A stretch of DNA of 64,000 nt, taken from positions 930,001 through 994,000 of the forward strand of contig BSDZ01000022.1 of NCBI GenBank assembly GCA_030268105.1. The letters run 5' to 3'. The notes under the pieces were generated by a model. The model made no database searches. It saw nothing but the letters and a program-made list of their open reading frames with translations, and was not told the origin of the DNA. Of this stretch, positions 10,201-60,453 are shown one piece after another (position 1 is the first letter of the stretch; every line of letters starts with the position of its first letter). The stretch comes from Volvox africanus. Lineage: Eukaryota > Chlorophyta > Chlorophyceae > Chlamydomonadales > Volvocaceae. The translations under genes and the position numbers were made by a program.

Positions 10201-10856
10201 CTACGCATAGCCCGCATTAGCTCCTGCTACGAGACTTTGCCAAAGGAAGAGAAAGCCCCTCTCAGCGGTTGAAAAACTGTCCCGCCACTGGCAGCCACGA
10301 ACCCCCAAGTCGAGGTAGTGCTCCCGCAACGCTGAGGAACCTGCGGCCCAGCCGCCGAAGGCTTCGATAATATCCAGGGGCACCCCCGCGAAGCACCGCC
10401 GTGACACAGACTGTACAGGGTATGTACGGGCTGAAGCCGCTCCAAACCGCACTGCGACAAAACACGACCAAACCAACGCTCCGCCCCTTGCGTTGTCTGG
10501 CGCACCGGCCAGAGACGCGATGTATCCCGCGCAAATAACTGGGAAAGAGCCACCCGTAGGTGCGGTAGATTGCCCAACGGAAACTGCAATACCGGGGCCA
10601 ACTCAGGCGCGACTAAGCGGCCTTTCCAGTGCAGGGGCTTGTACTGGAAGGTCGACTCACCATCAACAACAGACACACGCGCCCAAACGACGGACAGTAG
10701 GGAGTCCGGCCGGAGAAACAGACAAAAACTAAGTACGACAAACAGGAGAGGGATAAACAGGTCGGACGCGACTGGCACCGACGGGAGTCGCTCATATAAG
10801 GACCACGCGTCTATGGCACTGAAGGCGAGGACCAGGGCGGAGGGCGGGGCTCCCAA
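10201..10856 (-). pseudogene. DIRS tyrosine recombinase, catalytic domain
   Basis: Would cut and rejoin DNA to integrate a circular element copy. The first part, read from 10856, has FLRPDSL with the first catalytic arginine, then YSLCHGGASRG near 10420-10390, where the family has an H-x-x-R type box; arginine is replaced by cysteine (TGT for CGT). The reading then shifts frame, and the C-terminal segment GVPLDIIEAFGGWAAGS...LREHYLDLG, with the nucleophile tyrosine, is in a second frame ending near 10201. A further frameshift near 10830 separates this domain from its N-terminal part in the upstream frame. Two frameshifts and a lost arginine make the enzyme dead. Confidence 0.75.
10217..10242 (-). 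repeat. DIRS split direct repeat B1 (26 bp)
   Basis: Inner copy of the B repeat, 23 bases from A2, beside the recombinase end. Confidence 0.82.
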
Positions 10857-12268
10857 CCCCTGCGAAACGCCGACAAAAGCACGTTGTCTCCGTCACACGG
10901 CTTTTGAAAGCCTAATAAATCATGCACTGTGTTAACTGCACTAAAATAAGGTTGCGCGGTGTGCACCTGGACAGTCCCCCGGGCAGCCAGGAATTGCGCC
11001 CATAACAACCCCGTGTAGCGGGAGGCAGGCAAGAAGTCCATACCCTCCCCGATACAAAAACACACAAACGCTGAAAAACGAGAGGCATAAGACTGCCAAG
11101 TCTTGGTACCGATACGCGCCATGATGACTGTGGCGATCTGCTCCAGGCGCGAGGAGTGATCCCGACCAGGAGCCGCCGCTTGCAGATGTTTGACTAGTAA
11201 CCCGGTGACCACCGGGGGGGCAGTCGCCAAACGCGTGTCCAACGCATAGCGAGGCACGGGGGTAGCAGCTCCGCGTGCGCCGCGCATGAGCGCCCAATCT
11301 ACCATTGCACTCGTACTGCCACCACCTGCCACTGAGGGGGGGGTAAGGTAGCGGCTCGACCCGCCCTCGCCGGGAGCGAACAGCTCCGTATTGGAAGGCA
11401 GGAAGACCAGATCCACCGGTAGCTCCATCAGCAGCTGCCACCATGGTTGTGCCGTCCAATAGGGCACCACCAACGTGACGCACGCTTGCTCCTCCCGGAC
11501 CTTCTGCACCACGGCCAACAAGAAGTCCGTGTCCAAGGGCGGGCAGCCGTAAGCATTGGACCCATCCCAGGGCTGCAGCAAGGCGTTGACCCCGGCCGAG
11601 CCAGGGCAATGAAAAAGCGTGTCGAGGTGTGTGGCGAACAGATCCACATCGAACGGACCAAACCAGCGCTTTAGCAAACGAAAATAACGAGGGTGGAGTC
11701 GGTAGTCACCCCGATCAACCCAACGGGAAGCCACATCCGCCTGATTAGCTGCACTATCGACACGCTCGACTTGCAAGATGATGCCGTGCTTCTGAAGAAA
11801 ATCCCACAAGCACTGGAGCTCAGCATGCATAGCGGGCGACCGAGAAGAAAGGCGGCCTATAACGGCCTGCGTACACATGTTATCCTCCCGAATCAAAACG
11901 ACTTGCTGCTGCACGTAAGGCAAAAAGGACTCCAATGCATGACGTACGGCACGCAGCTCCTTCCAATTGATGTGCGCAGGCACCTCAGCACTCGACCAGT
12001 AACCGCGCGCCGTGCGACCATGCAGCACGGCGCCCCACGAGTGACGGGATGCATCCACAGACAGCTCAACAGCCGCGGGGCCTAAGTGAATGGCCGCAGA
12101 ACAGTGTCGGGTAGGCACCGCCGTCCACCAATCAAGATCCCGCATAGAACCCCGAGACAGGCGCACCCTGCCAGACCAGCCCACCGGCTGCTTGAGGTCA
12201 TCATAGAAGTTGCGCAGGAAAAGGGGGGCGGGGTGAGGGCCAGCTTCACACTCTGAGCGAAACCACAC
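10811..12268 (-). pseudogene. DIRS RNase H and recombinase N-terminal domain
   Basis: Continuation of DIRS pol in a frame shifted from RT. From 12268: the RT connection (YDDLKQPVGWSG), RNase H with AVELSVDASRHSWGAV (first acidic residue), NWKELRAV and the acidic site in REDNMCT, then VDSAANQADVASR. A linker follows with FDVDLFATH and VPYWTAQPWW, seen in other DIRS pols. The end, WQSYASRFSAFVCFC onward, looks like the SAM-like N-terminal domain of a tyrosine recombinase. The switch from the RT frame lies in a GGGGGG/AAAA run near 12225, consistent with a slippage indel. A second shift near 10830 separates the recombinase core. Confidence 0.78.
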
Positions 12269-13275
12269 AACTTAGCCAGCTCTCGCTTCTGAACCAGGCG
12301 GCGATTCTTCTTGGCTGTAATGCGCAGTCCAATCGCCAGCCGGCGCAACTTGGCCAACTTCTCCTGGGGCACCTCGAACAAACCATCCGCCGTATTAACG
12401 GTGATACCTAAATGGTAAACGGACTGAGACGGCGTCCACTGGCACTTCGTGGGATGGCAAGATAGGCCCAAGAATTCAATGCTCTCCTTGACCCACTGGG
12501 CTCCAACACGGGCTTGTTGCTCGGAAGCAAAAACAAACAGGAAATCATCAAGGTACGGCAAGACACGCACACCCAACCGGGCGGGCCGACCACACCGCGC
12601 CGGGGAATAAAACTGGTGTGGGGGAAGGGGGGGTTTCAGGTGAGGACGCCCACCACCAACCGAGGCCAGGGGATCACGCCAGAAACGCACGACGTTGCGC
12701 ATGATCTTGGAAAACCAATAAGGGCTGTTGAGCCAGCCCATTGGTAGTGCGTTCACCTGGTACAACACACCGCAGAAACGAAACACAAAGAAACGACGGT
12801 CGGCCTCACGAATGGGAATGTGGTAGAAGGCATCCGCCAGATCCACCTTAACCATCCATGAGCCTTGAATACCCATCCGTCGCAGCGTTCGGAGGGACTC
12901 ATAACGACACTTGTATGCCTTCTGCGCAATATTCATGCGCTTCAGGTTGACAACCAACCGCCACGACCCACTACCCGGTTTGGGCACACAGAACGCGTTC
13001 ACCACATGCTTGACTGCCTGAGGGGCCTCCACCCGGGATATAGCGCCAAGCGCGATCAACCGGGGCTCCTCTTGTTCTAACCACCAACGGCGCTGCTCAA
13101 TGGTGACCGGGAAACTGGGTAGATCGAACGCAGGTGGCGGACGGTCCCCCAAGAACTCCACCGGGACACCATGCTTCAACACATGTAACGTGCGTGTATC
13201 CGCGCCAATAGCTTTCCACGCAGCCAACCTAGCAGTGACCCGCGCATGCAGGGGTGTAGCGGAATGCAAGGGCAT
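12082..13275 (-). pseudogene. DIRS reverse transcriptase
   Basis: Copies element RNA into DNA. ATG at 13275-13273 lies one codon after the gag TAG and in the same frame. Blocks in order: VVNAFCVPKPGSGSWRLVVNLK, VDLADAFYHIPI (catalytic aspartate), LPMGWLNSPYWFSK, LPYLDDFLF (catalytic YLDD, near 12560) and YHLGITVN thumb-like segment, about 397 codons. About 40 codons at its end, after SVKLALTPPP, are out-of-frame readthrough; the true continuation is in the frame at 10811-12268. The catalytic residues are intact, so inactivation here is only the frameshift. Confidence 0.8.
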
Positions 13276-13278
13276 GAT

Positions 13279-14223
13279 CTAATGGCCCTGCCCCCACCCC
13301 GTCTGGGTCAAGGCACCAGAAGCCGCGACGGTGCACGCAGGCTGAACAACACGACCACCGACGCCACGTCCACGACCCCGGCGGCCAAGGCCACCATGCC
13401 CACGGAACTGTCCCCTATTGCTGCTCCGATGAACCTCCTGCTCAGCTAAAGACCTAAGGGTCACCTTTGCTCTAGCCTTCGCGTACTCTGCATCAAACTC
13501 CCGAGTAACGTCATCCAGTAACGGACGTTCCGACTGGGCGAAGTAGCGCTGATGGAGTGCGACGAGACCATCGCGGCCCCGACGGCTAAATTCCGCCAGG
13601 CAATTGATTCGGGCCGAAATGATGTTATACATCCAGGCAACGTCATAAAGCAGGGTGTCACAAGCGCATGATAGCGCAACCAACCAATCCTGTCGAAGGT
13701 TACAGTGGCCTATAAAGCGCCGAATAATGGATAATCCGGAACGAACTAACTCGACCACGCTAAGTAGAGTGAGCAGAATGCTCATCTCGTAGACGAGCGA
13801 TCCGGCGCGATCCGGATGACCCCTCTGCGCCTGCTCCAAGTGCTGCCATTCCAGGATCCCACGGTAGTTGTGTAATACCAGGTTGTCAGCAGACATGGTT
13901 CCCGGTAAATTGTGAAGGAGAAAGTCGGGAAACGGGTACCGGGCGCCGCTAGGCGACCGTTGCACTTGCGGCGATGCGTAATCCTCTAGCAATGCGCGCA
14001 GGTCAAACTCAGGGCCAGACGTCGCACCTTGACTGTTGAGTCGGGCATTGACACTGGCTAAGTCCTGCTGCATTTGTGACAGCATGCCGATGATGTCTGG
14101 TCCCCCTGGCGCGCCTTGAGCCGATATCTGCCTGGGCATCGAGCCCAGATGCACTGCTCCGAGAGGCGTGTTACCGCTGCTCATTAGTCCAGAATGCTGA
14201 GAGAAGTATTGTTCGGGCGTCAT
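13279..14223 (-). CDS. DIRS gag-like protein
   Basis: Putative nucleic-acid-binding structural protein of about 314 residues. I chose ATG at 14223-14221 (MTPEQYFSQHSG) over near-cognate codons upstream. The middle is alpha-helical in composition and the C-terminus is rich in RG/GRG (GQFRGHGGLGRRGRGRG), as in RNA-binding gag tails; no zinc knuckle is visible. The stop TAG at 13281-13279 is followed by ATC and then the pol ATG in the same frame, so pol could come from readthrough or re-initiation. No internal stop is seen. The family call rests on its place upstream of DIRS RT. Confidence 0.72.
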   Translation of the reverse strand: MTPEQYFSQHSGLMSSGNTPLGAVHLGSMPRQISAQGAPGGPDIIGMLSQMQQDLASVNARLNSQGATSGPEFDLRALLEDYASPQVQRSPSGARYPFPDFLLHNLPGTMSADNLVLHNYRGILEWQHLEQAQRGHPDRAGSLVYEMSILLTLLSVVELVRSGLSIIRRFIGHCNLRQDWLVALSCACDTLLYDVAWMYNIISARINCLAEFSRRGRDGLVALHQRYFAQSERPLLDDVTREFDAEYAKARAKVTLRSLAEQEVHRSSNRGQFRGHGGLGRRGRGRGVGGRVVQPACTVAASGALTQTGWGQGH

Positions 14224-14418
14224 GGCAGTTACTTCACAAGCATAACCGCCGACCACCGAAGATGAGCAGACTGGATGCCAAATTTGCCACCGATGATGGC
14301 AACCAAATATTATGTCCCGCAGCGGGTACTGAACTCAAAGAGTCTTGCTGAAGAGCCGAAGGCACAGCGGTTACTAACAGAAAGCGCGCCTAAGGCGCGG
14401 GACCTGTTTAGTTGTTCA

Positions 14419-45574: not shown

Positions 45575-46358
45575 GACCCGCTGCCGCCGCTCATCGACGA
45601 CAGCGACCATGAGGGCAACGACTCTGACAATGACAACGATGGTTTTCTGGAGCCGGCGGATTTTACACCAGAAGGGCGGTGCACACTCCCGCCCGAGGCC
45701 AAGTTCACGGTCACCGCTGGCAGGTGGTTGCTGTGCGACCACCCGGACATGCCGCCGGAGCTGGCCGCGCAGTTTAAGGAATTGGTAGATCGGTGTAACG
45801 GCGTTTTCGCCCGCAGCATGGCGGATCTAGGAGAGTATTGCGGTGACGTGGGCCCTGCCCGCATCGAGCTTGCTCATCAGCGCCCCATCTACCAGCGGCC
45901 CCGTTCCCACAGTCAGGAGTACGCCGCCATGGACGCGGCCTGCCAGGAGCTGCTGGATGCCGGGATCATCGAAGAGAGCCGCTCCAGCCAGTACACCATG
46001 AACTCCACCCTGCCGCCCAAGCGGTCGGTGGATGGTACCTGGACGCAGCGGCGGTTTTGTCAGGACGCACGGGAGCTCAATGCTGCCACCCTGCCCGACC
46101 TGCACCTGTCGCCGCTGCCGGAGCAGCTGTTTCAGCAAGTGGGGGACTCGCTGTGGCTTACCAAGATGGACTGCTGGGCTGCCTTCCTGGAGATTCCGCT
46201 GGCACCTGAGCATTGGGAGCGCACTAGCTTCTGGTGGCGCCGGCGGCTGATGCAGTACAGGTGTCTGGTGTACGGCCTGCGGAACGCCACAGCGCACTTC
46301 CAGCGTGTCCTGGACCACGCCATTCACCAATACGGTTTGGAGCAATTTGTCGCCTGCT
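45575..46358 (+). pseudogene. E9 reverse transcriptase, N-terminal part
   Basis: Follows a +1/-1 change of frame from the protease. Motifs: an acidic linker (about 45580-45660); IELAHQRPIYQRP; LLDAGIIEESRS; QRRFCQDARELNAATLPD; LTKMDCWAAFLEIPL (palm aspartate); RTSFWW; and YGLRNATAHFQRVLDH. It ends FVAC at 46357, where the next codons of the intact gene would be Y-V-D-D. Those are found at 56131 onward after the inserted element. Confidence 0.8.
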
Positions 46359-46408
46359 CACTATAACAAGGAATTCGTGCGTTAGCTCGCGTTAGGCTCG
46401 CGTTAGGG
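46359..46408 (+). repeat. CACTA element left terminal inverted repeat
   Basis: Pairs with 56079-56128 in inverse orientation with only a few mismatches over about 50 bases. Confidence 0.85.
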
Positions 46409-46935
46409 ACCCCTAATGCAAGCCTAACGCAAGCTGAACGCGAACTAACACGAGCTAACGCAAAGCCTAACGCAAATCAAACGCATTGCGTTATTGTTTG
46501 CATATCGCTAACGCAATCCTAACGCACCTAACGCAATCGCAAATAAACGTTTTTGGGAGGGAACGAAAATGTTTGCGTTTACTTTGCGTTAGCTAACGCA
46601 ACCTAACACGAACTTACGCAATGTCAAACGCACCCACATAGATTCTAAGGTGTGCGTTAGGCCTAACGCAACGCAAGCGTTAGAGACCCATACGCAAGCA
46701 AAAATACATAGCGTGCATGGAAGTTAATGCACTTAAAGTTCTCTAACGCACAATATACGCACGCCTAACGCGCATTAACGCGCATTAACGCATGCTTGTG
46801 TATGCTGCGAATAATGCGTACACAGCTAGCAGTTGTGGGTTGCGTAAAAGTTTTATACGCATGTAACTAACATATTCGCACGCTTTCGCAAGGTCTTACG
46901 CATGCGATAGCAACATTCGCGCCACTTTCGCTTTG
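46372..46935. repeat. Left subterminal TAACGC repeat cluster
   Basis: The heptamer GCGTTAG/CTAACGC and variants occur over twenty times on both strands in about 560 bases. Such arrays bind transposase or its partner in known CACTA elements; that role here is inferred. Confidence 0.75.
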
Positions 46936-47421
46936 CGTACGAGGCAGACTCGCATTCTTGCTCACTGCAACTACTTTTGGTCGTTCTGGTTATTTCTTTA
47001 CTGTTTCAGTTATCGTTCCTGTTATCGTTTTCTGTTTTGCCCACCCGCTGCAGAATTATTTTTGTGTGTACGGAAACCATCCTGTCATAATGTACGTAGC
47101 TGTTATGAAGAATATCAATAGGATTTCAGTTTTGATAGATGAAGATATTTTAGGCAATAATTTACAGCTCATTATTCGGAAAGCATCCAGGTAAGCAGCC
47201 ATTGGTGAGTGACTACCCATTAATTCAACAAAACAATCAAATTTCTACACATCCAATCCTGCCAATCAAATTTTGTTTATGAGTTAAATAATCATTTGTA
47301 CCATGCACCAATCATTTCAATCATCATTAGGTACATACATCCTAACTTCATCTGCCACCGCACATTTAGCAGCCCGCTCTAACATAAGCTTAGAAACAAA
47401 CATGATAGATGTTAGTTCTAT
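46936..47421. other. Non-coding interior of CACTA element
   Basis: No credible gene. A minus-strand TGTAA at 47166-47162 lies about 256 bases downstream of the stop of the multi-exon gene and could be its poly(A) signal. Confidence 0.35.
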
Positions 47422-50155
47422 CTAATAGTCTTCTATTTCACTATCATCGTTGTCGTCGTCCTCTCGCGCACTGGTGGCATCATCCTGCTCGTCCTCACTC
47501 ATCTCGTCCTTGCTCACCTCCTCCTCAAACAACTCCTGAAAAGTTCAGAAAAGGAAAATTATACTTATTTACATGCATATATATAAAGGTAAATTAAGCC
47601 GACACGACCCAGCAATCATTTTCAGTTACGATATTTTTAATCATGTCTAGGATGGGCAGTGTCTAGGTACTATGTATGTGGACACTTTGTTACCTGTTTC
47701 TTCTTACTCCCTGAGCCCCCACGTTGACGTCGTGCCCGTGTACATCGCACATCTTCCGAAGCACTCTTGACCTTTATCAGTCGAAACAACACATATTAGA
47801 ATATTACATTCATACAAGCAGGAAATTAAGACAACAAGCTGAACTCAGGAAATTTACCTTCTTTCGCCGGTGGTCGTAACTGTCATTATTGTCGTCACCG
47901 TCCGTAGACTTGTCTTCCACCGGCACCTGCTGGTCCAAAATACGTGAAGGGACTAGGTAGTGATAGCAAATATAATTAAAAAGTAATTAATGCCGGGCCT
48001 CAATATATTGTACCTTTCTTTTGATGCCCGTGCTTGTCCGTCTCACTTTCGTGGATGGCCGCACATCGCCGTCGTTTGTTACCTTCAAGGGCCACCGTTA
48101 ACATACATATATGATTTTAGAAATGATAAGCTTATATTTTCTTTTTAAAAAGAGAAAAACAAATCGACGTATACCACATCAAACCACAAAGCACGCAGCA
48201 AATTAAAAGAATAGAACGAAACATATAATTACAACTCACTAAAACGGGAAGACAGGATGAATATTCATTAATGGGCTGTACCTTTTTCGCTGCCGCCTTG
48301 CTTGAGTTCGTAGCATTCCTGCTGGAGTTCCTTGCCTTAGAGGGCTGTGGACTCTTTGCCTACATGAAAAGGAAGTATGTTTGAGGAAAATAGGAACAAT
48401 TACATAAAAGACAAAAAGGAGAAAACAGGTTAAAGGACATTAATGACCTGTACATCCCTGTACATGCAATCCATAATGTACATCACCCATCCTGCAATAA
48501 CCTTGCTAAGCGCGCCTGGAAATTTGCACACCCCATCAACCACTCTCTTTACCACTATTATTTGGACTAACCTGTCGGCGTCTAGCGGCCTGGATCTCCT
48601 CCTTCTGATGTATGCGAGCTGCATTGGTAGCCAGCACCATCATCAATGCATCTTCACCATGTGCGGGCTACTTTTGGCGTTTGCTAGTGCGCCCATCCTG
48701 AGTTCCTGGCGGCTCGTCATTTCGGCCGCTTTTCTGCAGTTTGGTAGCAATTAAGCATTTTGTAAACAAGGAAATAAAGGCATGAAAACATTGTTATTGT
48801 TGTACTAGCTAAAATAAAAAACAACGGTTATGCATGAACTGTGATGTACTTTCTGCAATCATACTAAGAAGTACGTACTATTATGGTGGCGAAGCAGCAG
48901 CAATAATTAAAGTGAACACATGCATAATCGCATCTTACCCTAGTGCCTTTTGGCAACTCCAGTGCACCAAGGCCTGGTGTATGCTGAGCTGTTCCACCAG
49001 CTCCAACCGGCACTGGAGTGGCTGGTACGGCAAAGGATGTCTTACTGCTTTCAATCTGCTTCCGCTGCACAAGTGTATTAATAAGCTCCTGTTGCCGATC
49101 TGTCACATTCAAATCCTCCATCACAATGCGGCGCTCACTGGGACCCGCATCTGGGTTATCTGGCTGAGCGTACTTGAAGCTCCTCCAGGCTGCCCAAGAC
49201 TCCTTGTTCCACAGCTTCTTCCATGGCTTCTTCTCAAACTCATCTACATAAAAATAATGTGAAGACGAACATCAACGCCAGATGCCATGATACACATCAT
49301 TGTCGAAAGTTTTCGTAATCCCGTACATAGCGTAAGCGGCATGGCATGTCCTTTGTCGTAAAACAAATCTTTGGCCCGCGTTTACCCCATATTCCATTTT
49401 TCAAAATACATAGAAAGGATTTTTTTATCAAACAACCTGATCAAAATATGTTGTAAAAAAGTATATGGATGACAAGTAGCAGTACGAGCTCACAAACCTG
49501 GCTTGCAGGCAAGTTCCTCCTTTTGGGTGGCCTTCACCTTTTCGTACCTTGCATGTTGGGCATTGTAATCCGTTGCGTATCTACAAAGTACATGGGATAC
49601 ACCGAATAAAAGTGCTTACTTTTTATACTGTGCATGCTTCATTCTATTGTTGTCTGTCCCCACTGAAAGTAAGCTAATGATATGGATGGCATGTATGATG
49701 ACCACAAACAAGATAATCACTAGAAGCATAACAGTAGGAAAATAAACATGTACGTACTTTTGCCATTTCTTCTTGAAGCAGTCGACCGTAACTCTTGGCT
49801 GTAAGTCAGCCACTTGTGCAAAGCCAGCAGCAAAGCACTTATCCCAAACGGGCTGCAGATGCGGCACACATTGAATATCCTTCGCAATGAGGACCCGTGG
49901 ATTCTTCAGGCTGCTGTCGAGGTTGTACGGCACGTTGTCGCGGACGGCTTTGTTGATGGCGGCCTGCTCATATGACCTGTTCCGCTTTGATGGCTCACCA
50001 CGATCATGATCCTTTCGTATACTGATTCTGCTTACTTCAGGGGATACCAATTGAACAGATGGCTGTTTTAGGGATATATGGATAGTTAGTTTCTTCTGAG
50101 CCTGGTTCCAAGCCTTCCCCTTAAAATGTTCATTACGTTTTTTATGCGATGACAA
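47422..50155 (-). CDS. Unrecognised multi-exon gene carried by the CACTA element
   Basis: Nine exons join in one frame with GT...AG at every junction: up to 50155-49758, 49580-49498, 49243-48939, 48733-48572, 48359-48282, 48082-48014, 47929-47858, 47765-47694, 47535-47422, together 451 codons with the stop. Introns after exon 3 are all phase 0. The N-terminal third has KRNRSYEQAAINKAVRDN and a tryptophan/lysine-rich helical stretch (CFKKKWQKYATDYNAQHARY) that recalls Myb/SANT-like DNA-binding proteins, only weakly. The C-terminal half is made of short basic exons (KRK, HRRKK, SKKK) and ends in an acidic tail (EDDDNDDSEIEDY). Exon 4 has one in-frame TAG at 48670-48668, so this copy may be disabled. 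The first exon is uncertain: no ATG is in phase. A TATA-like tatata lies near 50352. Function unknown. Confidence 0.62.
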
Positions 50156-50548
50156 AATAATAACCGTGCTGAAAATTGTGGCGTGAATCCGTTGAAGTAT
50201 TCATTCCCGTGCAGCGATTGAACTAATCTGCCTTGCAATATGTCTGGATTTGGGAAGCATTGGGGTCATAGAGTACGTCTCACACATGGTCAATTTTCAT
50301 GGTCAATTTTCACACCTACGCAAAGCTGCTATGGTGCTTGCCGGAAAAGGCTATATAATTTTGGGGGCCTGCTCGATGTGTAACTGTGGCTCTTGGTGAC
50401 TTTGTTTGGGTCTCCATCTGGCAACATTGTTGCCTGGCTACTGTGTAAGGTTTGCTGTTGCCAACTTTCCGCGATCCTTACCCACGCTTGCTAACTCCGG
50501 CAGCTTGCTGCTCAATAATTAGAAAGCCTTCCATAACTAGAAAGGTAG
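50156..50548. other. Probable 5' region of the CACTA gene
   Basis: No clear coding. On the minus strand an acceptor-like ttttcag lies at about 50177-50171 and a TATA-like sequence near 50352, so an upstream exon may lie here. The copia insertion cuts this region at 50549. Confidence 0.35.
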
Positions 50549-50789
50549 TATTGAGATGTAGACTATCAGACATAAGGAAGCCTGAAGTAATTACGAGAAA
50601 GTAGAGTTACATATTATCTGATAGTAAGGAGTCCGAATAGTTCGTTCTGGAGTCGGCACATATACTTGTGCGTATAGCACTACAAACAGTACGAACGCGG
50701 GTCGATAGCTTACCGCCGAGTACAGCTACAACAGCGGGATTTTTGCTAGTATGGATCGCTATATCCAACTGATATACCATTTTATAACA
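50549..50789 (-). repeat. Copia 3' LTR (241 bp)
   Basis: On the minus strand TGTTATAAAATGG...CTCAATA. Its TG...TA ends differ from the usual TG...CA. The purine tract GAGGGGGCG precedes it at 50790-50798. Confidence 0.85.
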
Positions 50790-50904
50790 CGCCCCCTCGA
50801 GACATGCCTAGCAACAAGTGAAAGAAGATAATTCCAACCAGGGATTCTTCTTGAAACTGAAAAGCTAAAGCCAAACGAGTTCGCCCCAAACAAACTTAGA
50901 AAGC

Positions 50905-52509
50905 TTACTCGGCCAACCCCATCGCCGTAATGCACTTCTTAAACTTTATCTCTCCAAGTGCCTTGGTTAGCACATCTGCTACCATATCCTCCGTCGAACA
51001 GTGCGATAAGGCAACTTCCTTCCGCAGGACTCGTTCCCGCACTAGATGATGTTGCACGTCGATGTGCTTAGAACGAACCGACATTATCGGGTTATTCCCA
51101 AGGCTCATTGATCCCTCAGAATCCGTTCGAATCTGAATAGCCTGTGTCCTCAGACCCAAGTCTCTGATCAGCTTGCGAAGCCAAAGTGCCTCCCGCACTG
51201 CAGCTGCCGTGGCCTGGTACTCTGCCTCCACTGTTGAAGCTGCCGACGTGCGCTGCAATTGGCTGTTCCAGCTGATAGCTGCGCCGTTTAGCAAGAATAC
51301 GTAGCCAGTTGTGGACCTCCGAGTGGCTGGATCTCCAGCCCAGTCGGAATCACTGTAGCCCACCATGGTGAGATCACCATCTCCGTCATAGCATAATCCG
51401 AGCTCCTTGGTACCCGCCAGGTATCGCAGCACCCCCAAAGCCAAGCCCATGTGAACCTTAGATGGGTTGCCCATGAAGCGCGCCAGAACGCTCATTGCCT
51501 GCGCGATATCCGGTCTTGTGCTCGTCGCCAGGTAGTTCAATTCGCCGACAAGCGCCCTGTACTTGGTGTTGTCTACGAGCTCCTTGTTGTTGTCTTCTGC
51601 TGGCAGGGCTCTAGTACCAGGAGGTAGTGGGGTCTTTCGAGGCTTTGCATTGACGAGTTGATGTCGCTGCAGCAGCTCCTCAATGTAGCGTCGCTGCGAT
51701 AGTTTTACCTCCCCGTGCGCTCCCCGGCTGATCTCCATGCCCAGGAAAACTTTTGCCTCTCCAAGATCTCGAATCTTGAAGGCTTGTCCGATTTCTGTTT
51801 TCACTCTCCTGATCATTGCCTCGTCTTCTGAGGTGATGATGATGTCGTCCACGTGCACCAGCAGGTAGACGATCTCCTTCTCGTCCTTTTTGATGAACAG
51901 TGCTGGGTCCACTACTGACGGTTTGAACCCCAGCTTGTCCAGCTCCGCCGCTAGCTTCATATACCAGCAGCGTGGGGCCTGTTTCAGCCCGTAGATTGAG
52001 CGTAGAAGCCTGCACGCCTGCTCTGGATCTGCTGACTCGTAACCAGGCGGCTGCTGCATCCAGAGCTCCTCCTCTAGCTCCCCGTTCAGGAAAGTTGTTG
52101 AAACGTCTAGCTGATGGATCGGCATTGCTTTAGCCGCAGCCACCGCCAGGAGCATACGAAGTGAAGCAAAACGCGAGGTTGGAGCAAAGAGCTCCCCATA
52201 ATGAATCCCCGCCCGCTGCTCGTAGCCCTTCGCCACCAAACGTGCCTTGTAGCGCTCGATCTCGCCATCCTCTGCACGTTTGACCTTATACACCCACCGA
52301 CAAGGCAGAATCCGCGCACCTGGCGGTGGTTTTGCTAGCTCCCAGGTCCCATTTGTGAGCTGTGCTGAGATTTCCTCATCCATGGCACTTCTCCATTCCT
52401 CAGCATATGGGCCGTCAGTGGCCTCCTGGTATGAAGCTGGCTCTGGTACTTCTTCCTCGATTGCAGCGCCCGAACGTAACCCTTCCGTTGGGCTCATGCC
52501 TCCATTCAA
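50905..52509 (-). pseudogene. Copia reverse transcriptase and RNase H
   Basis: Read from 52509: RT motifs EEWRSAMDEEI, CRWVYKVKRAEDG, ARLVAKGYEQRAGIHYGELFAP, HQLDVSTTFLNGEL (copia usually has A before FLNG), YGLKQAPRCWY and LLVHVDDIIIT (catalytic DD, about 51845). RNase H shows YSDSDWAGDPATRRSTTGY, VEAEYQA, RTDSEGSM and MVADVLTKAL, ending TAA at 50907-50905. About 534 codons without an internal stop, but the frame is offset from gag-integrase, with the overlap around 52415-52509, so one indel separates them unless frameshifting is used. Confidence 0.88.
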
Positions 52510-54938
52510 TCAGTCGCTTTCGCTCACGTAGTGGATAGCGACGTTCCTGCATATTAACGTCTGCACCGTCGTTGTTGTGGTTTTGCTGCTGCACCGGCCC
52601 TTCGCCTGTCATAGCGACTCCACCATTGCCTCCGCGGGACTGCGCTGTATTTTGCGTCCTGGGAAACTGTGCTGCTGGTATGCCTGCGTGCCTCTGTGGC
52701 GCCGCTGTCTGGCCGCTGCTGGTGGATGCACCATGGTTCACTTCAGCAGCTCCCTGGTCCATGTCGGTGTTGACCGGTGTATCTCCGCCGCCCCCTGGCG
52801 ACGGAACGCCGCCAGACTCCTCAACATCCTCCTCGTCGGAATCCTCATAGCGATCTCCAACTGTTGACTCGTCGAACTTGACTGTCAAGTGGGTGCTGAT
52901 GAGATTGTTGATCAAGATGCGGTACTGCCTCCCTTGCTCGTATCCAACCAGCACTCCTTTTTTACTCACGGGTTGCAGTTTGTTCCGCTTCTCCTTCAGC
53001 ACGTGTGCATATGCGGTACTGCCGAAAACTCTCAGATGGCTTATGTCCGGCTTCACCCCCATGAACGCCTCATGGGGCGTTACTGATGCCCCCACGACTG
53101 GTGAAACGTTGCGCAAAAGATTTGCCGTAGCCATGGCTTCTGCCCAGAGCTTCTGCGGTAGTCCTGACTCCGCCAGCATTGCCCGGGTCTTCTCCAATAG
53201 GGTCCTGTTGAGGCGCTCCGCCGCCCCATTCTGCTCCGGCGAATACCCAACGGTCGTACCATGGATAATCCCTTTTTCGCCGAAGTAGGCGCTCATGGCT
53301 GAGTTAAGGAACTCGGTCCCACGATCCGTGCGTGCCTCCTTCACGCGATGGCCAGTCATATTCTCCAGCGCCTCGATCATTGTCTTGACCTTCTTTTGAA
53401 CTGCGTCCTTGGTCTCTGTGAACGCAACAGTAGAAAATCCCGTGCAGTCGTCCAGCAATGTAGTAACGTACCGGGATCCACCTATCGAAGTCTCAGGCAT
53501 AGGTCCACAGACGTCCAGGTGTATCAGGCCCAGAGGTTTCGCCACCTTGTGTCCAGTGGACGGGAATGGTCCACGTGTTTGCTTTGCATAAATGCAGGGC
53601 TCGCAGATCCGCGACCTGGCTGCTTCCAGACTCAAGCGATCCAAATCCATGCCGGTTACCATGTGTTCCCGGCACATACGTTCCAGGCTCTTGTAGCCCA
53701 GATGCCCCAAGCGCCGATGCCACAGCGCTGCCTTCAAGCCTTCTGACCCGACCACCGCACATGAGCGGCCTTTCTTGGCTAAACGCCCTGCTGTGTGATG
53801 GCGAACAACATAGAGGCGTCCCACTTTGTCTGCGCGTAGGATTGTCCTCCCCTTTGCTTGCACGAGTGCTTTGTTGTGGCCCAGCTGGATGGTGGCGCCA
53901 CGCTCATCAAAGATCCCTGCTGAGATCAACTTCACTGTCGCCTTGGGCACCACATAGACGTTCTTGAGCTCAATTTGCAGCCCCTTGACGGTGTTACTCC
54001 ACATGGTGTAACGGCCCACGTGGGTTGGCTTATACTTGGAGCCATCGTAGCCAACCACCGTGAACATTTCTTCTGGCTGCACAGCTCTCACGTCCTCCAG
54101 CTCTGTCGCGTCGTGGGTGATATGCCATTCTGACGCTGAGTCCAGGTGCCAGGCGTTCGACCGCGACTCGTTTCCAACTGCATACGCCATTTTTGTGGGC
54201 TCCCTGCGCTGAAGGTTGCCCCCGCCGCGTCCATAATTTTGTTGTTGGTCTGCCAGGCGCTTCTTGCATACTCCGATAAAATGCCCTGGCTTGCCGCAGT
54301 AATGACAGATAGCGTTTGACTTGCTCCTCTGCTTACTTTGTTGATTACGGCCTGTAGAGCTTGCGTTGCCACCACTTCGGTGTGTGATGTATGCGGATGA
54401 TGACTCCCTGTTGTCATCGTCCGGTATCACATACGCCATGAGTCGCGCGACCACTTGTGAGAAGTCCAGCTCTCCTTCACGCATTGTCAGGGCTGTTGTT
54501 ACCACATGATACTTGCTCGGAAGTCCTTTGATGACAATTGTAGAGAGCTCCGTGTCTGCGACTGCGTGTCCCACATCCAGCAAGTCCGACTGTAGCTGTC
54601 GCGCGCGGCTGATATAAATTGGCAGCTCCTCTCCATTAGCCATTTTAAAATCACTTAGCTCCTGTCGTAGTGCTACCTTTCTCGTGTTGCAGGTTGATGC
54701 GAACGTAGCCGCCAAAGCGTCCCAGGCGGCCCGAACAATTTGTTTGGAGGTGATGGTTCTTTACGTTCTTGGCCATCACACTCTTGACCTTGTCGGAGAT
54801 GATGACATCCGCCTCTGCAATTGGTGCTTGTAGCAGGGCGCGACTGTATCCAAGCTCCGCGCACAACAATTGGAATCGTAGTTTCCAAGTTGAGTAGTTG
54901 TGTAGGTCCAGCGGCTCGTCCAGCCTATCCTTTCCCAT
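52415..54938 (-). pseudogene. Copia gag, protease, integrase
   Basis: ATG at 54938 (MGKDRLDEPLDLHNYSTWK) gives the gag start. A frameshift near 54750, before RAAWDALAATFAS, moves into the long frame 54715-52415. That frame holds gag helices, a zinc knuckle CHYCGKPGHFIGVC (CX2CX4HX4C, about 54310), a protease with WHLDSASEWHIT where copia normally has DSGAS, the integrase zinc region (HRRLGHLGY, CEPCIYAK) and the core with HLDVCGPM, ARTDRGTEF and SPEQNGAAERLNR supplying D, D and E. The G-to-A change at the protease site and the frameshifts suggest recent loss of function. Confidence 0.86.
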
Positions 54939-55010
54939 TGTGAAGACCTATAAACGCGAAGATCAACACTAGAATGGGCAAAAGATGTCAGGCTCCGCGG
55001 TCAACGATGA

Positions 55011-55025
55011 CCGGGGCTCATAACC
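55011..55025 (-). other. Copia primer-binding site (internal tRNA type)
   Basis: Minus-strand GGTTATGAGCCCCGG touches the 5' LTR. It is complementary to a methionine tRNA anticodon stem-loop (CTCATAA loop with GGG/CCC stem), not to a tRNA 3' end, as known for half-tRNA-primed copia elements. Confidence 0.65.
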
Positions 55026-55266
55026 TATTGAGACGTAGACTATCAGACATAAGGAAGCCTGAAGTAATTACGAGAAAGTAGAGTTACATATTATCTGATA
55101 GTAAGGAGTCCGAATAGTTCGTTCTGGAGTCGGCACATATACTTGTGCGTATAGCACTACAAACAGTACGAACGCGGGTCGATAGCTTACCGCCGAGTAC
55201 AGCTACAACAGCGGGATTGTTGCTAGTATGGATCGCTATATCCAACTGATATACCATTTTATAACA
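55026..55266 (-). repeat. Copia 5' LTR (241 bp)
   Basis: Matches 50549-50789 with about two substitutions. Confidence 0.88.
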
Positions 55267-55271
55267 GGTAG

Positions 55272-55689
55272 CCATGAAGAGACATGTGTGGCACTTCAGA
55301 GTTTTATGTTACAAAGTAAGCCACATGTACAGGTTCTAAATCCATATAATGGTAGCGATTTAGCGATGTTAACAAGCGTTCACCAGAGCAATCTCTTGTA
55401 CAACGACTAGTATTCATAGCGCTATCCTAAATTGAAATTAACTTTGAAGATATTTTATGCACATGTACAGGTTCTAAATCCATATAATGGTAGCGATTTA
55501 GCGATGTTAACAAGCGTTCACCAGAGCAATCTCTTGTACAACGACTAGTATTCATAGCGCTATCCTAAATTGAAATTAACTTTGAAGATATTTTATGCAC
55601 AAAGTCTCCAATGCTACTGCACAATAAGAGCAAGTAAGCAAACTAAATAAATCCGGCGAACCCGTGCTCCGAACATTATTATGCGCTAT
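55272..55689. repeat. 138-bp tandem duplication in CACTA element
   Basis: 55322-55459 is repeated head to tail at 55460-55597 with no difference seen. No coding potential. It could include upstream sequence of the multi-exon gene, since removing the copia element brings it next to 50548. Confidence 0.75.
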
Positions 55690-56115
55690 CTACATAAACT
55701 TTGCGTAAACTGCGTTACAGTGCGTTACGTGCGTATGGTAACGCACTGTACGCAAGATATACGCAAGCTGTTTGCGTAAAGTTAACGCGTGCGTTAGGTT
55801 TGCGATCGCGTGCGTTAGGTTTGCGATCGCGTGCGTTAGGTTTGCGTTAGGCTCGCGTTAGAACATACGCAAGCCCCCGATTTTCGAGCACCACGAAACG
55901 TAATAAAAATTGCAGGGAACTTTTATACTCATTATAAATATTGTTTTCATTTAAACAAACTTGAAAACGACGCACTATAACAGACGTTCTGTCAAGTTTT
56001 CTATTTCTTTGCGTTAGGCTCGCGTTAGGCTAACGCAATCTCTAACGCACAAAACGCAGCCTTACGCACACATACGCGCCCTAACGCAGCCTAACGCGAG
56101 CCTAACGCACGAATC
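55690..56115. repeat. Right subterminal TAACGC repeat cluster
   Basis: The same GCGTTAG/CTAACGC motif as the left cluster. It includes nearly three copies of a 21-bp unit (gcgttaggtttgcgatcgcg plus t) at 55791-55846. Confidence 0.75.
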
Positions 56116-56128
56116 TCTTGTTATAGTG
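56079..56128 (-). repeat. CACTA element right terminal inverted repeat
   Basis: Ends GTTATAGTG at 56128, followed by the GCT duplication. Confidence 0.85.
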
Positions 56129-56398
56129 GCTACGTCGATGACCTGCTTGTCTTCAGTAGCACGGCGGAGGAGCATCTGCAGCACCTGCAGCGTGTGTTTG
56201 CCATGCTGCAGGACATCGGCATCAAGTTACACCTGGAGAAAACCCTCATCGCGGGCGACTCGGTTGAATTCCTGGGTTTTATGGTCTCGGCGCGTGGCCT
56301 GTCCCCTACCCGCGCCAAGGTGGAGGCACTGCTGGCGTTGGAGCCGCCTACGTCCTCTGCTGGTGTGCGGCGGCTGCTGGTGTGCGGTGGCGGCACAT
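56129..56398 (+). pseudogene. E9 reverse transcriptase, C-terminal part
   Basis: Begins with the GCT duplication, then YVDDLLVFSSTAEEHLQHL, the catalytic box and following helix of a Ty3/gypsy RT, LEKTLIAGDSVEFLGFMVS and RAKVEALLALEPP. It joins in phase to FVAC at 46357 once the CACTA element and one GCT are removed. It ends near 56398, where antisense gag begins; RNase H and integrase are missing. Confidence 0.82.
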
Positions 56399-58426: not shown

Positions 58427-60453
58427 ATGAATCGCTGGACGATGGCCGCCGGAGCACGCCTACGGATGTACGGTCTGTTGGCCATCGCAGTGCAGCTGCT
58501 GCTGGGACTTCTAGCTTCCTCAGCTACATGTAAGTTATGCAGTTTGTTTAAACATATTCTATCATGCATATTAACTGCTTGATTTGGGTACTGGATGCAT
58601 CGATCTATCTTTGGCCGGAAGCACCATGCATGTCAAGGAGCCGCAAGCACCATTCCACATATGCTTACACCTAAAGAACCACCGCCTTATGAAATTAGAA
58701 AATTCATTTGCTATTTATTATTGTCTTTGTCGTCGCTAAAGTAAGGATTTAGATCACACACACGAAAGAATGACCACGGCCCGAAACTGTGAGAACGTTA
58801 GTAAACATCGCTCATCAGCTCACTCCACAACTGACTCCCACCCCTCAATAACTGCACAATTTTACAGACACTATCACGGTATACAGCAACGTTGCTGTAA
58901 CTGGGAAGGCCGGGGTAGCGGACAGTGTCAACAAGCTCCTGACCGACTTCCCGCGGGCAATTTCCGTAAGCAGTCTCAAGCAGAGCAACTCCCAGCCCAG
59001 CTCCTCCGAGCTCGCCAGCAGCAATGCTTTCATTATCTACGCCGCCGGATTAGGGTCATACTTCAAAACCGAGGGACTGGCCTCAAATCCCGCCAAACTT
59101 TCGGCCTTGGCTGAGTGGATCAAGGCTGGCGGCTCCCTGATCCTCGCAGACGGCGCCTACAGCGCCAACGGCTTGCTCCAAAACTCCTTCACCCCCCTAA
59201 TAGACGCATTATTGGGACCGGGTCAGGAGGCTGGCTGCAAAGCCGCGGCTTTTGACCTTACCACCCGCATTTTCCGCCGCTTTAATCCGCCGTCCTTCTT
59301 CGGGTACCTGCCCGTCAAGAACTTCCGATACCAGGCTGACGACACGTTCAGTGCGCTGGCGTGTAAGTCCGGGTTTCAGATCTACTCATCCAACGCAACC
59401 AAGAAGACCTTCAGTCGTGCAGCGGCGCTTACGTGGGGGCTAGGCAAGGGCGCAATTACCTGGAGCGGTGCGAAGATCCTGGAGAATCCTAGTGGACCAA
59501 TAGCGGTGAGTCTGTTTGTGGTTCCGTCTGTCTGTCTATCTATCTGTCTGCATCCATCTGTGTATCAGTCTGCGCGTCCATCAGCTGAACAATAACAACA
59601 ACAAAGGCAACAGTACACGACACAACATAGACTTTGCGCATAGGGGTATGGACATAACCCTTGCTATGTACGGAATTAAGCTCATGATGCAGATATACAG
59701 GCGCTGAGGCAAACTGCGTGTCACTGATTACTGGCTGGCTTCCTTCATGTGTCATGTGTCACTTTGATTGTCGTGTGATTACGTTGAAAGCCTTCAGTCG
59801 CAGCCTTGGGTGCCTTCGCGTTCACGGCCGCATGCAGTTGCGGTAGGAGAAAGGAGATGCGCGATTCGAACGAAGGGTTCCATAAACCGATTACAGCTCC
59901 GCTGAGTACACAGAAGGTATTGAACTGATTGCTCCCTTTGCGGTTCGTGCCCCGGCAGCTTGTGGTGGCAGCGGCTGTGGTTGTGGAGCCTCTGGCGCTG
60001 CCACCCCCACCACCCGGACGTAACCCGCCGCCACCACCGCCGCCTGTCCGCTCTCCGCCACCCCCACCGTTACGGGCATCCCCACCGCCGCCGCCATCAC
60101 CTGCCCGCTCTCCGCCGCCGCCACCACCTGTACGATCTCCGCCGCCGCCACCACCTGCCCGCTCTCCACCGCCGCCACCACCCGCCCGCTCGCCGCCGCC
60201 GCCACCACCTGCCCGCTCTCCGCCGCCGCCACCACCCGCCCGCTCGCCGCCGCCGCCACCACCTGCCCCCTCGCCGCCGCCGCCTGCGTTATCGTCACGG
60301 CCATCTCCCCCATCTCCCCGAGGACGACTTCCATCCGCGCCGCTATCCCGGCCGCCGCCACCAACCAAGTCCCCAACAGGTCGCCGGCGGCCGCCGCCGC
60401 CTGAGGAGGCGCCTCCCCCCTACGGGGACTACGCTCCCCCTCCTTTGGGCTAA
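58427..60453 (+). CDS. Secreted hydroxyproline-rich glycoprotein with novel N-terminal domain
   Basis: Three exons, GT-AG junctions, continuous frame: 58427-58529, 58868-59505, 59959-60453 (stop TAA), 411 residues. Residues 1-34 form a signal peptide (MNRWTM, then the hydrophobic LLAIAVQLLLGLLASSA). Residues about 35-247 form a globular domain starting TITVYSNVAVTGKAG, with IIYAAGLGSYFKTEG and LAEWIKAGGSLILADG, a pattern reminiscent of glutamine-amidotransferase-like or ThuA-like folds; I do not assign it. Residues 248-411 are proline-rich, with repeated ARSPPPPPP units as in volvocine wall and matrix glycoproteins (pherophorin-like rods). Probably secreted to the extracellular matrix and hydroxylated/arabinosylated there (family inference). 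Intron 2 has a TCTG/TCTA microsatellite. Confidence 0.75.

What the first reader, a model, noticed from the sequence alone, without database searches (positions are those of the whole stretch)
47422..50155. Intron-rich gene of unknown family carried inside a CACTA-type transposon
Nine minus-strand segments each begin after AG, end before GT and join in one frame (451 codons), which is unlikely by chance. The product has a tryptophan/lysine-rich helical part, many basic clusters and an acidic tail, as expected of a nuclear DNA-binding protein, yet matches no transposase I know. It may be the element's own mobility protein or a captured host gene. It is the best candidate here for something undescribed. 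One in-frame TAG in exon 4 suggests this copy is freshly disabled or that an intron is misplaced.
Basis: partly seen in the sequence, partly recalled or inferred. Interest (0 to 1): 0.75.

Follow-up and report, generated by a model that had tools for sequence, protein, structure and literature searches.

The report
Broken helper gene of algal transposon
The many-intron gene is a real but beheaded leftover of a helper gene from a two-gene jumping element of the CACTA kind in a multicellular green alga; intact copies of that gene, beside a transposase-like gene, sit elsewhere in the same genome.

Summary
The window lies in the Volvox africanus genome. The nine-segment gene is real: the same eight GT-AG junctions and frames recur in other copies, in an intact relative in the same genome, and (in part) in predicted proteins of V. 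africanus and V. reticuliferus. It is most likely the element's own second gene. The element (46359-56128, CACTA termini, 3-bp target duplication, 35 subterminal TAACGC sites, nested copia) is a deletion derivative of about 4.87 kb without transposase; 13 two-ended copies were read, all 13 with matching 3-bp duplications. The parent, 13.4 kb at one locus by end coordinates, carries the intact second gene head-to-head with a transposase-like gene (predicted product 954 aa). The window's gene lost its start codon and about 90 codons; a stop shared by 37 of 44 copies read shows it is not freshly disabled, and 7 of 12 copies checked have further lesions. Best reading: remnant of a TNPA-like accessory protein that would bind the subterminal repeats (function inferred, untested). 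No Pfam model reaches its cut-off on either protein and no usable fold was obtained. A divergent new variant of a known kind; moderate interest. Side finding: two large arrays of element-derived units on contigs C10 and C19.

The parts
46359..46385 (.). left terminal inverted repeat (CACTATAACAAGGAATTCGTGCGTTAG), 27 nt, 93% complementary to the right one
   Evidence: pair I4
46359..46900 (.). left subterminal region with 19 TAACGC/GCGTTA sites in 542 bases (none in 47001-50548)
50123..50548 (.). inner part of the element's right-end region, not homologous to the intact gene's exon 1; continues after the nested copia
49758..50122 (-). exon 1 fragment (KGKAWNQ...KKKWQK), 5'-truncated, no in-frame ATG
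49498..49580 (-). exon 2 (ATDYNA...CKP)
48939..49243 (-). exon 3 (DEFEKKPWKKLW...ELPKGT), tryptophan/lysine-rich
48572..48733 (-). exon 4, with in-frame TAG at 48670-48668
48282..48359 (-). exon 5 (AKSPQPS...AAAKK)
48014..48082 (-). exon 6 (VTNDGDV...IKRK)
47858..47926 (-). exon 7 (VPVEDKS...RRKK)
47694..47771 (-). exon 8 (VKSASED...KKKQ)
47422..47535 (-). exon 9, acidic tail (ELFEEEVSKDE...EIEDY*)
50549..55266 (-). nested copia LTR retrotransposon (LTRs 50549-50789 and 55026-55266, 2 differences in 241 bases, 5-bp duplication GGTAG); an insertion into the element, not part of it
55641..56128 (.). right subterminal region with 16 TAACGC/GCGTTA sites in 488 bases
56102..56128 (.). right terminal inverted repeat; 3-bp target duplication GCT at 46356-46358 and 56129-56131

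Best explanation
The gene is the 5'-truncated remnant of the second (accessory) gene of a CACTA-type DNA transposon of Volvox africanus. Shown: the window element keeps both ends, the subterminal repeats and about five-sixths of this gene's coding part, but no transposase; longer elements in the genome (13.4 kb at one locus by end coordinates) carry the intact first exon of this gene head-to-head with a gene for a 954-aa transposase-like protein; the truncated form has many copies with 3-bp target duplications. Inferred: the intact protein works like TNPA of maize En/Spm, a basic nuclear protein that binds the repeated TAACGC sites at both ends, pairs the ends and brings in the transposase; the derivative arose by internal deletion, is moved in trans by proteins from the parent, and its own gene copy is a passenger.
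For: Ends and 3-bp duplications in 13 of 13 two-ended copies plus the window; joining the flanks less one GCT restores the frame QFVACYVDDLL of the target gene. Subterminal sites 19 + 16, none in the 3548 bases tested between. In L059 the same left end is followed by the accessory gene with an intact 258-codon first open frame, then divergent transposase-like exons. One parent by coordinates: left end C5:2975142, N-terminal exon C5:2971117-2971386, transposase exons, right end C5:2961734. The right end lies 4197-4229 bases beyond the C-terminal transposase exon in the 8 copies that could be paired. Truncation junction in 34 of 39 copies read, intact in 5 (two of these are neighbouring array units); stop in 37 of 44, sense codon in 7. 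Lesions and pN/pS near 1 in truncated copies. In En/Spm both proteins can act in trans on deletion derivatives, and TNPA-type proteins of different CACTA families share little sequence similarity (PMC2613891, passages seen).
Against: No direct test of DNA binding or expression. No Pfam model matches the protein above its cut-off, and AlphaFold gave a mean pLDDT of 40, so no fold supports a DNA-binding domain. The transposase-like protein has no Pfam hit to Transposase_21 up to E=10; its catalytic motifs were recognised by eye from recalled patterns. The letters of the parent's right end could not be read, so target duplications of the parents were not tested and the internal-deletion origin of the derivative is inferred.
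Confidence: 0.85

Rival explanations
1. The gene is a captured host gene carried as a passenger by the transposon (Pack-CACTA-like transduplication).
For: No similarity to a known transposon protein or Pfam family.
Against: The 85 genome matches to the N-terminal exon show no recognisable divergent host paralogue down to E=10 (N-terminal 90 residues only). In the copies mapped the gene lies beside the transposase-like gene. The 8 protein-database relatives among 350 candidates are all from Volvox.
Confidence: 0.06
2. The truncated gene is still functional in the 4.87-kb elements, through a new upstream start or an alternative acceptor at the end of the TAG, giving a short basic protein that regulates (for example represses) the parent element.
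For: The stop is nearly fixed in the amplified subfamily, which is compatible with a useful short product; an acceptor AG at the stop could also skip it.
Against: No in-frame ATG in the window's truncated exon 1; frameshifts, a lost donor or an extra stop in 7 of 12 copies; pN/pS around 1.
Confidence: 0.07
3. The intact protein is mainly an anti-silencing or demethylating factor rather than an end-binding factor needed for the cut itself (this concerns the function, not the remnant status).
For: TNPA of Spm also reactivates methylated promoters (PMC1636069, passage seen); basic clusters and acidic tail fit either role.
Against: Nothing here separates the two roles; the dense subterminal repeats favour at least an end-binding role.
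Confidence: 0.2

Closest known systems
En/Spm and other plant CACTA elements (TNPA + TNPD)
   Same: CACTA termini, 3-bp target duplication, many subterminal short repeats, a multi-exon accessory gene besides the transposase, non-autonomous deletion derivatives (features as in the passages of PMC2613891).
   Different: Here the two genes lie head-to-head on opposite strands, whereas Spm makes both from alternatively spliced transcripts of one unit (PMC2613891, passages). The accessory protein has no Pfam match above a cut-off and the transposase does not hit Transposase_21.
Jordan and Idaten, CACTA-like elements of Volvox carteri
   Same: Same genus; PMC5093975 describes Jordan as resembling En/Spm and CACTA elements, with terminal inverted repeats (passages).
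   Different: Idaten and the CCCTA termini of both are recalled, not seen here; no sequence comparison was made, so kinship is open.
SmTRC1 and other non-plant CACTA (TRC) elements
   Same: Accessory proteins without similarity to TNPA, proposed to act like it (PMC1636069, passages).
   Different: 2-bp rather than 3-bp direct repeats at the ends and a recognisable Transposase_21 domain (same passages).

Membership tests
CACTA (EnSpm) superfamily | terminal inverted repeats beginning CACTA | tested here: met
   27-nt inverted repeats CACTATAACAAG... in the window; 13 two-ended copies, of which L006 begins AACTA at the left
CACTA (EnSpm) superfamily | 3-bp target-site duplication | tested here: met
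   13 of 13 two-ended copies and the window; not tested for the long parents
CACTA (EnSpm) superfamily | subterminal short repeats in both orientations | tested here: met
   19 left, 16 right, 0 in the 3548 bases tested between
CACTA (EnSpm) superfamily | DDE transposase of the Transposase_21 type | tested here: inconclusive
   P0009 has motifs that look like it by eye (recalled pattern), but no Pfam Transposase_21 match up to E=10; genome search with PF02992 found nothing and its controls were silent too; fold model unusable
TNPA-like accessory protein (functional class) | encoded by the same element beside the transposase, multi-exon | tested here: met
TNPA-like accessory protein (functional class) | binds the subterminal repeats and is needed for excision | not testable with these tools
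   needs expression and binding assays
TNPA-like accessory protein (functional class) | sequence homology to TNPA | tested here: inconclusive
   no Pfam hit above a cut-off and no homologue outside Volvox among 350 candidates, but no direct comparison with TNPA was made; published TNPA and TNP1 share little similarity either

The most novel reading that the evidence does not exclude
The parent represents a separate, divergent CACTA lineage in which an accessory gene with no relatives found outside Volvox and a transposase with an extra N-terminal ubiquitin-like domain (the source's own name for P0009) are expressed from a shared divergent promoter, and both N-termini carry small alpha/beta domains through which the two proteins pair; the array of about 325 kb on contig C10, which repeats the accessory gene's 5' part and the transposase's N-terminal half but not its catalytic part, could be a selected regulator or structural (for example centromeric) locus.
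Probability: 0.12. Interest if true: 0.6.

Novelty: new variant of a known kind. Interest (0 to 1): 0.38.

Why it matters
Accessory proteins of CACTA elements diverge so fast that they are hard to recognise; this gives an intact one with its transposase-like partner, its likely target repeats and a series of deletion derivatives. The papers listed in my searches (listings and some passages only) did not describe this family. It also shows a transposon feeding large tandem arrays.

Tried and rejected
Captured host gene: no support (with the limit named above). Intronless retrocopy at C4:3962222: at first sight a spliced copy, but its exons are fused by a deletion that leaves intron residues. 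The C88 copy ending at L059 8826 as a complete element: rejected; of 15 other right flanks read, 14 continue with one common sequence and L075 departs from it after 8 bases, while C88 is broken there. Pfam on exons and pieces: nothing above a family's cut-off. Solved structures by sequence: nothing meaningful. AlphaFold of both proteins: mean pLDDT 40 and 35, so no fold search was run. Viral contigs: no match to P0009. Rfam on the window: no match at the gathering score. The first database search with transposase pieces scored nothing: I had typed the exons in the wrong order, and the 954-aa relative was also beyond that query's length limit; repeated in the right order and longer.

Full report
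Where it is. The window is G000:C22:930001-994000 of a 141-Mb, 126-contig genome. Database relatives of the gene are named Volvox africanus and lie on contigs with lengths equal to contigs of this genome (for example 5,130,913 bases, C10), so the organism is taken to be Volvox africanus.

The element. Bases 46359-56128 are bounded by 27-nt inverted repeats starting CACTATAACAAG and by the 3-bp duplication GCT; joining the flanks with one GCT restores the frame QFVACYVDDLLVFSS of a reverse-transcriptase gene. A copia retrotransposon with LTRs of 241 bases that differ at 2 positions and duplication GGTAG is nested at 50549-55266. Among the 20 loci fetched by DNA similarity, 13 have both ends found, 4732-5124 bases long (L004 measured to its outer right end; its nearer one gives 4869), with 3-bp duplications in 13 of 13. 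The motif TAACGC/GCGTTA occurs 19 times in the left 542 bases, 16 times in the right 488, and not in the 3548 bases tested between.

The gene. Exons are listed under parts and checked: 441 codons from 50122 to 47422 including the final stop. The splice sites and frames hold in the other copies with the exceptions named. Exon differences from the relative C88 are 0.034-0.042, intron differences 0.052-0.059 (12 copies, L004 left out). The database proteins P0001-P0003 and P0005 (V. reticuliferus, 337 aa) share many exons but not all. Eight proteins were found among 350 candidates, all from Volvox.

The intact gene and its partner. An array on C10 and dispersed copies hold the gene with a longer first exon starting METHSPVV.... 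One search lists 15 dispersed copies of this exon with the full 258-codon open frame and 29 in the C10 stretch 4.2235-4.548 Mb, among 85 matches. At C88:383927 the same left end is followed by this gene on the minus strand and, head-to-head, by exons of a transposase-like gene. The database protein P0009 (VaNZ11_007950, 954 aa, 26 member sequences, named ubiquitin-like domain-containing by a source) covers that gene and continues it. It has a C2H2 zinc-finger-like stretch (zf-C2H2_7, E=0.0007, below the family cut-off) and stretches (CTDLPVAHRSKRRF..IPGPEEP; ADTPANRKLSLW..C..C) that by eye resemble CACTA transposases as I recall them. P0010 (340 aa, a metagenome source) is 40% identical over 42% of the query. 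The exon YWDFGVEN... is in 18 places; the C-terminal exon is full or nearly full (285 or more of 291 residues) in 15 of 25 matches. In the 8 copies for which a right end appeared in the printed list, it lies 4197-4229 bases past the C-terminal exon (C4, C5, three on C10, C11, two on C15). At C5 both ends are known: 2961734-2975142, 13,409 bases.

How the window copy arose. The truncated copies share one junction, where right-end sequence runs into KGKAWNQ of exon 1: 34 of 39 copies read; 5 have the intact exon. The stop in exon 4 is in 37 of 44 copies read; 7 have a sense codon, among them one truncated copy (L016), so the truncation probably came before the stop. Relative to C88, 5 of 12 truncated copies have a frameshift in exon 1 (L006, L008, L011, L013, L016), L010 has lost a donor and L005 has an extra late stop; 5 of 7 exon indel events are not multiples of three. 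Pairwise pN/pS between 8 truncated copies scatters around 1. Other relatives, mostly 72-87% identical in the N-terminal exon and mostly with stops, are scattered too. A motif from the derivative's right-end region is found in 239 places with up to 3 mismatches, and near several of those other relatives at about 1.7-1.8 kb from their N-terminal exon (for example C27:1029294 and 1031054; C10:184374 and 186161), so this region belongs to the family at large. Whether the long parents carry it was not seen, because the printed list was cut.

Mechanism. Shown: a mobile, multi-copy CACTA-type element; longer two-gene relatives with an intact first exon of the accessory gene; a form without transposase that has spread. 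Inferred: trans-mobilisation and a TNPA-like role for the intact gene. The passages of PMC2613891 say that TNPA binds subterminal repeats, that both proteins are needed and can act in trans on deletion derivatives, and that TNPA and TNP1 share little similarity; so lack of homology is expected and is no test. I give about 0.6 for an end-binding role of the intact protein and 0.85 for the statement that this is a remnant of the element's own accessory gene.

Literature. Searches for Volvox with CACTA, Idaten and transposon, V. africanus with transposable element and V. carteri with Jordan listed no paper on this family by title or abstract start. I saw passages of PMC2613891, PMC1636069, PMC8226300 and PMC5093975 and no whole paper; subscription papers are mostly not held, so this is weak evidence of novelty.

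Results against the reading. No fold, no Pfam support and no expression data; the parent's right end was not read; the transposase domain test was inconclusive; the search for a host copy was complete only for the N-terminal exon. On recheck the odds for the two sequence-level rivals were set to 0.06 and 0.07 in view of the limit and the extra lesions counted.

Noticed in passing
L051 (C10:4223500-4233499) and C10:4.2235-4.548 Mb: Blocks of tandem units of about 5.0-5.3 kb made of the inner part of the parent element; two neighbouring units are 99.96% identical at a period of 5018; 29 copies of the N-terminal accessory exon with the full 258-codon open frame lie in this stretch; a parent-type right end and transposase exons lie at its edge.
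   Followed up: partly
C19:2.81-3.07 Mb: Second array of element-derived units: right ends repeat mostly every 3564 bases between 3035624 and 3071240.
   Followed up: no
L004: A copy of the element inserted into the right subterminal region of what looks like another copy of itself, with 3-bp duplication CAT.
   Followed up: no
window 10201-14334, minus strand: Long open frames of a reverse transcriptase and a recombinase-like part that resemble a DIRS-type retroelement (recalled: Kangaroo of Volvox carteri); by eye only.
   Followed up: no
window 2890-42029: Many interrupted copies of a Gypsy-like retrotransposon with a chromodomain-like end; by eye.
   Followed up: no
window 58740-60453: Gene with a proline-rich repeat (27-bp tandem unit, 7.4 copies) that looks like a volvocine cell-wall (pherophorin-like) protein; by eye.
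   Followed up: no
L059 8826 (C88:392225): The C88 copy is broken at a sharp point and joined to a sequence whose only other full match, at C5:2476141, starts at the same point.
   Followed up: partly
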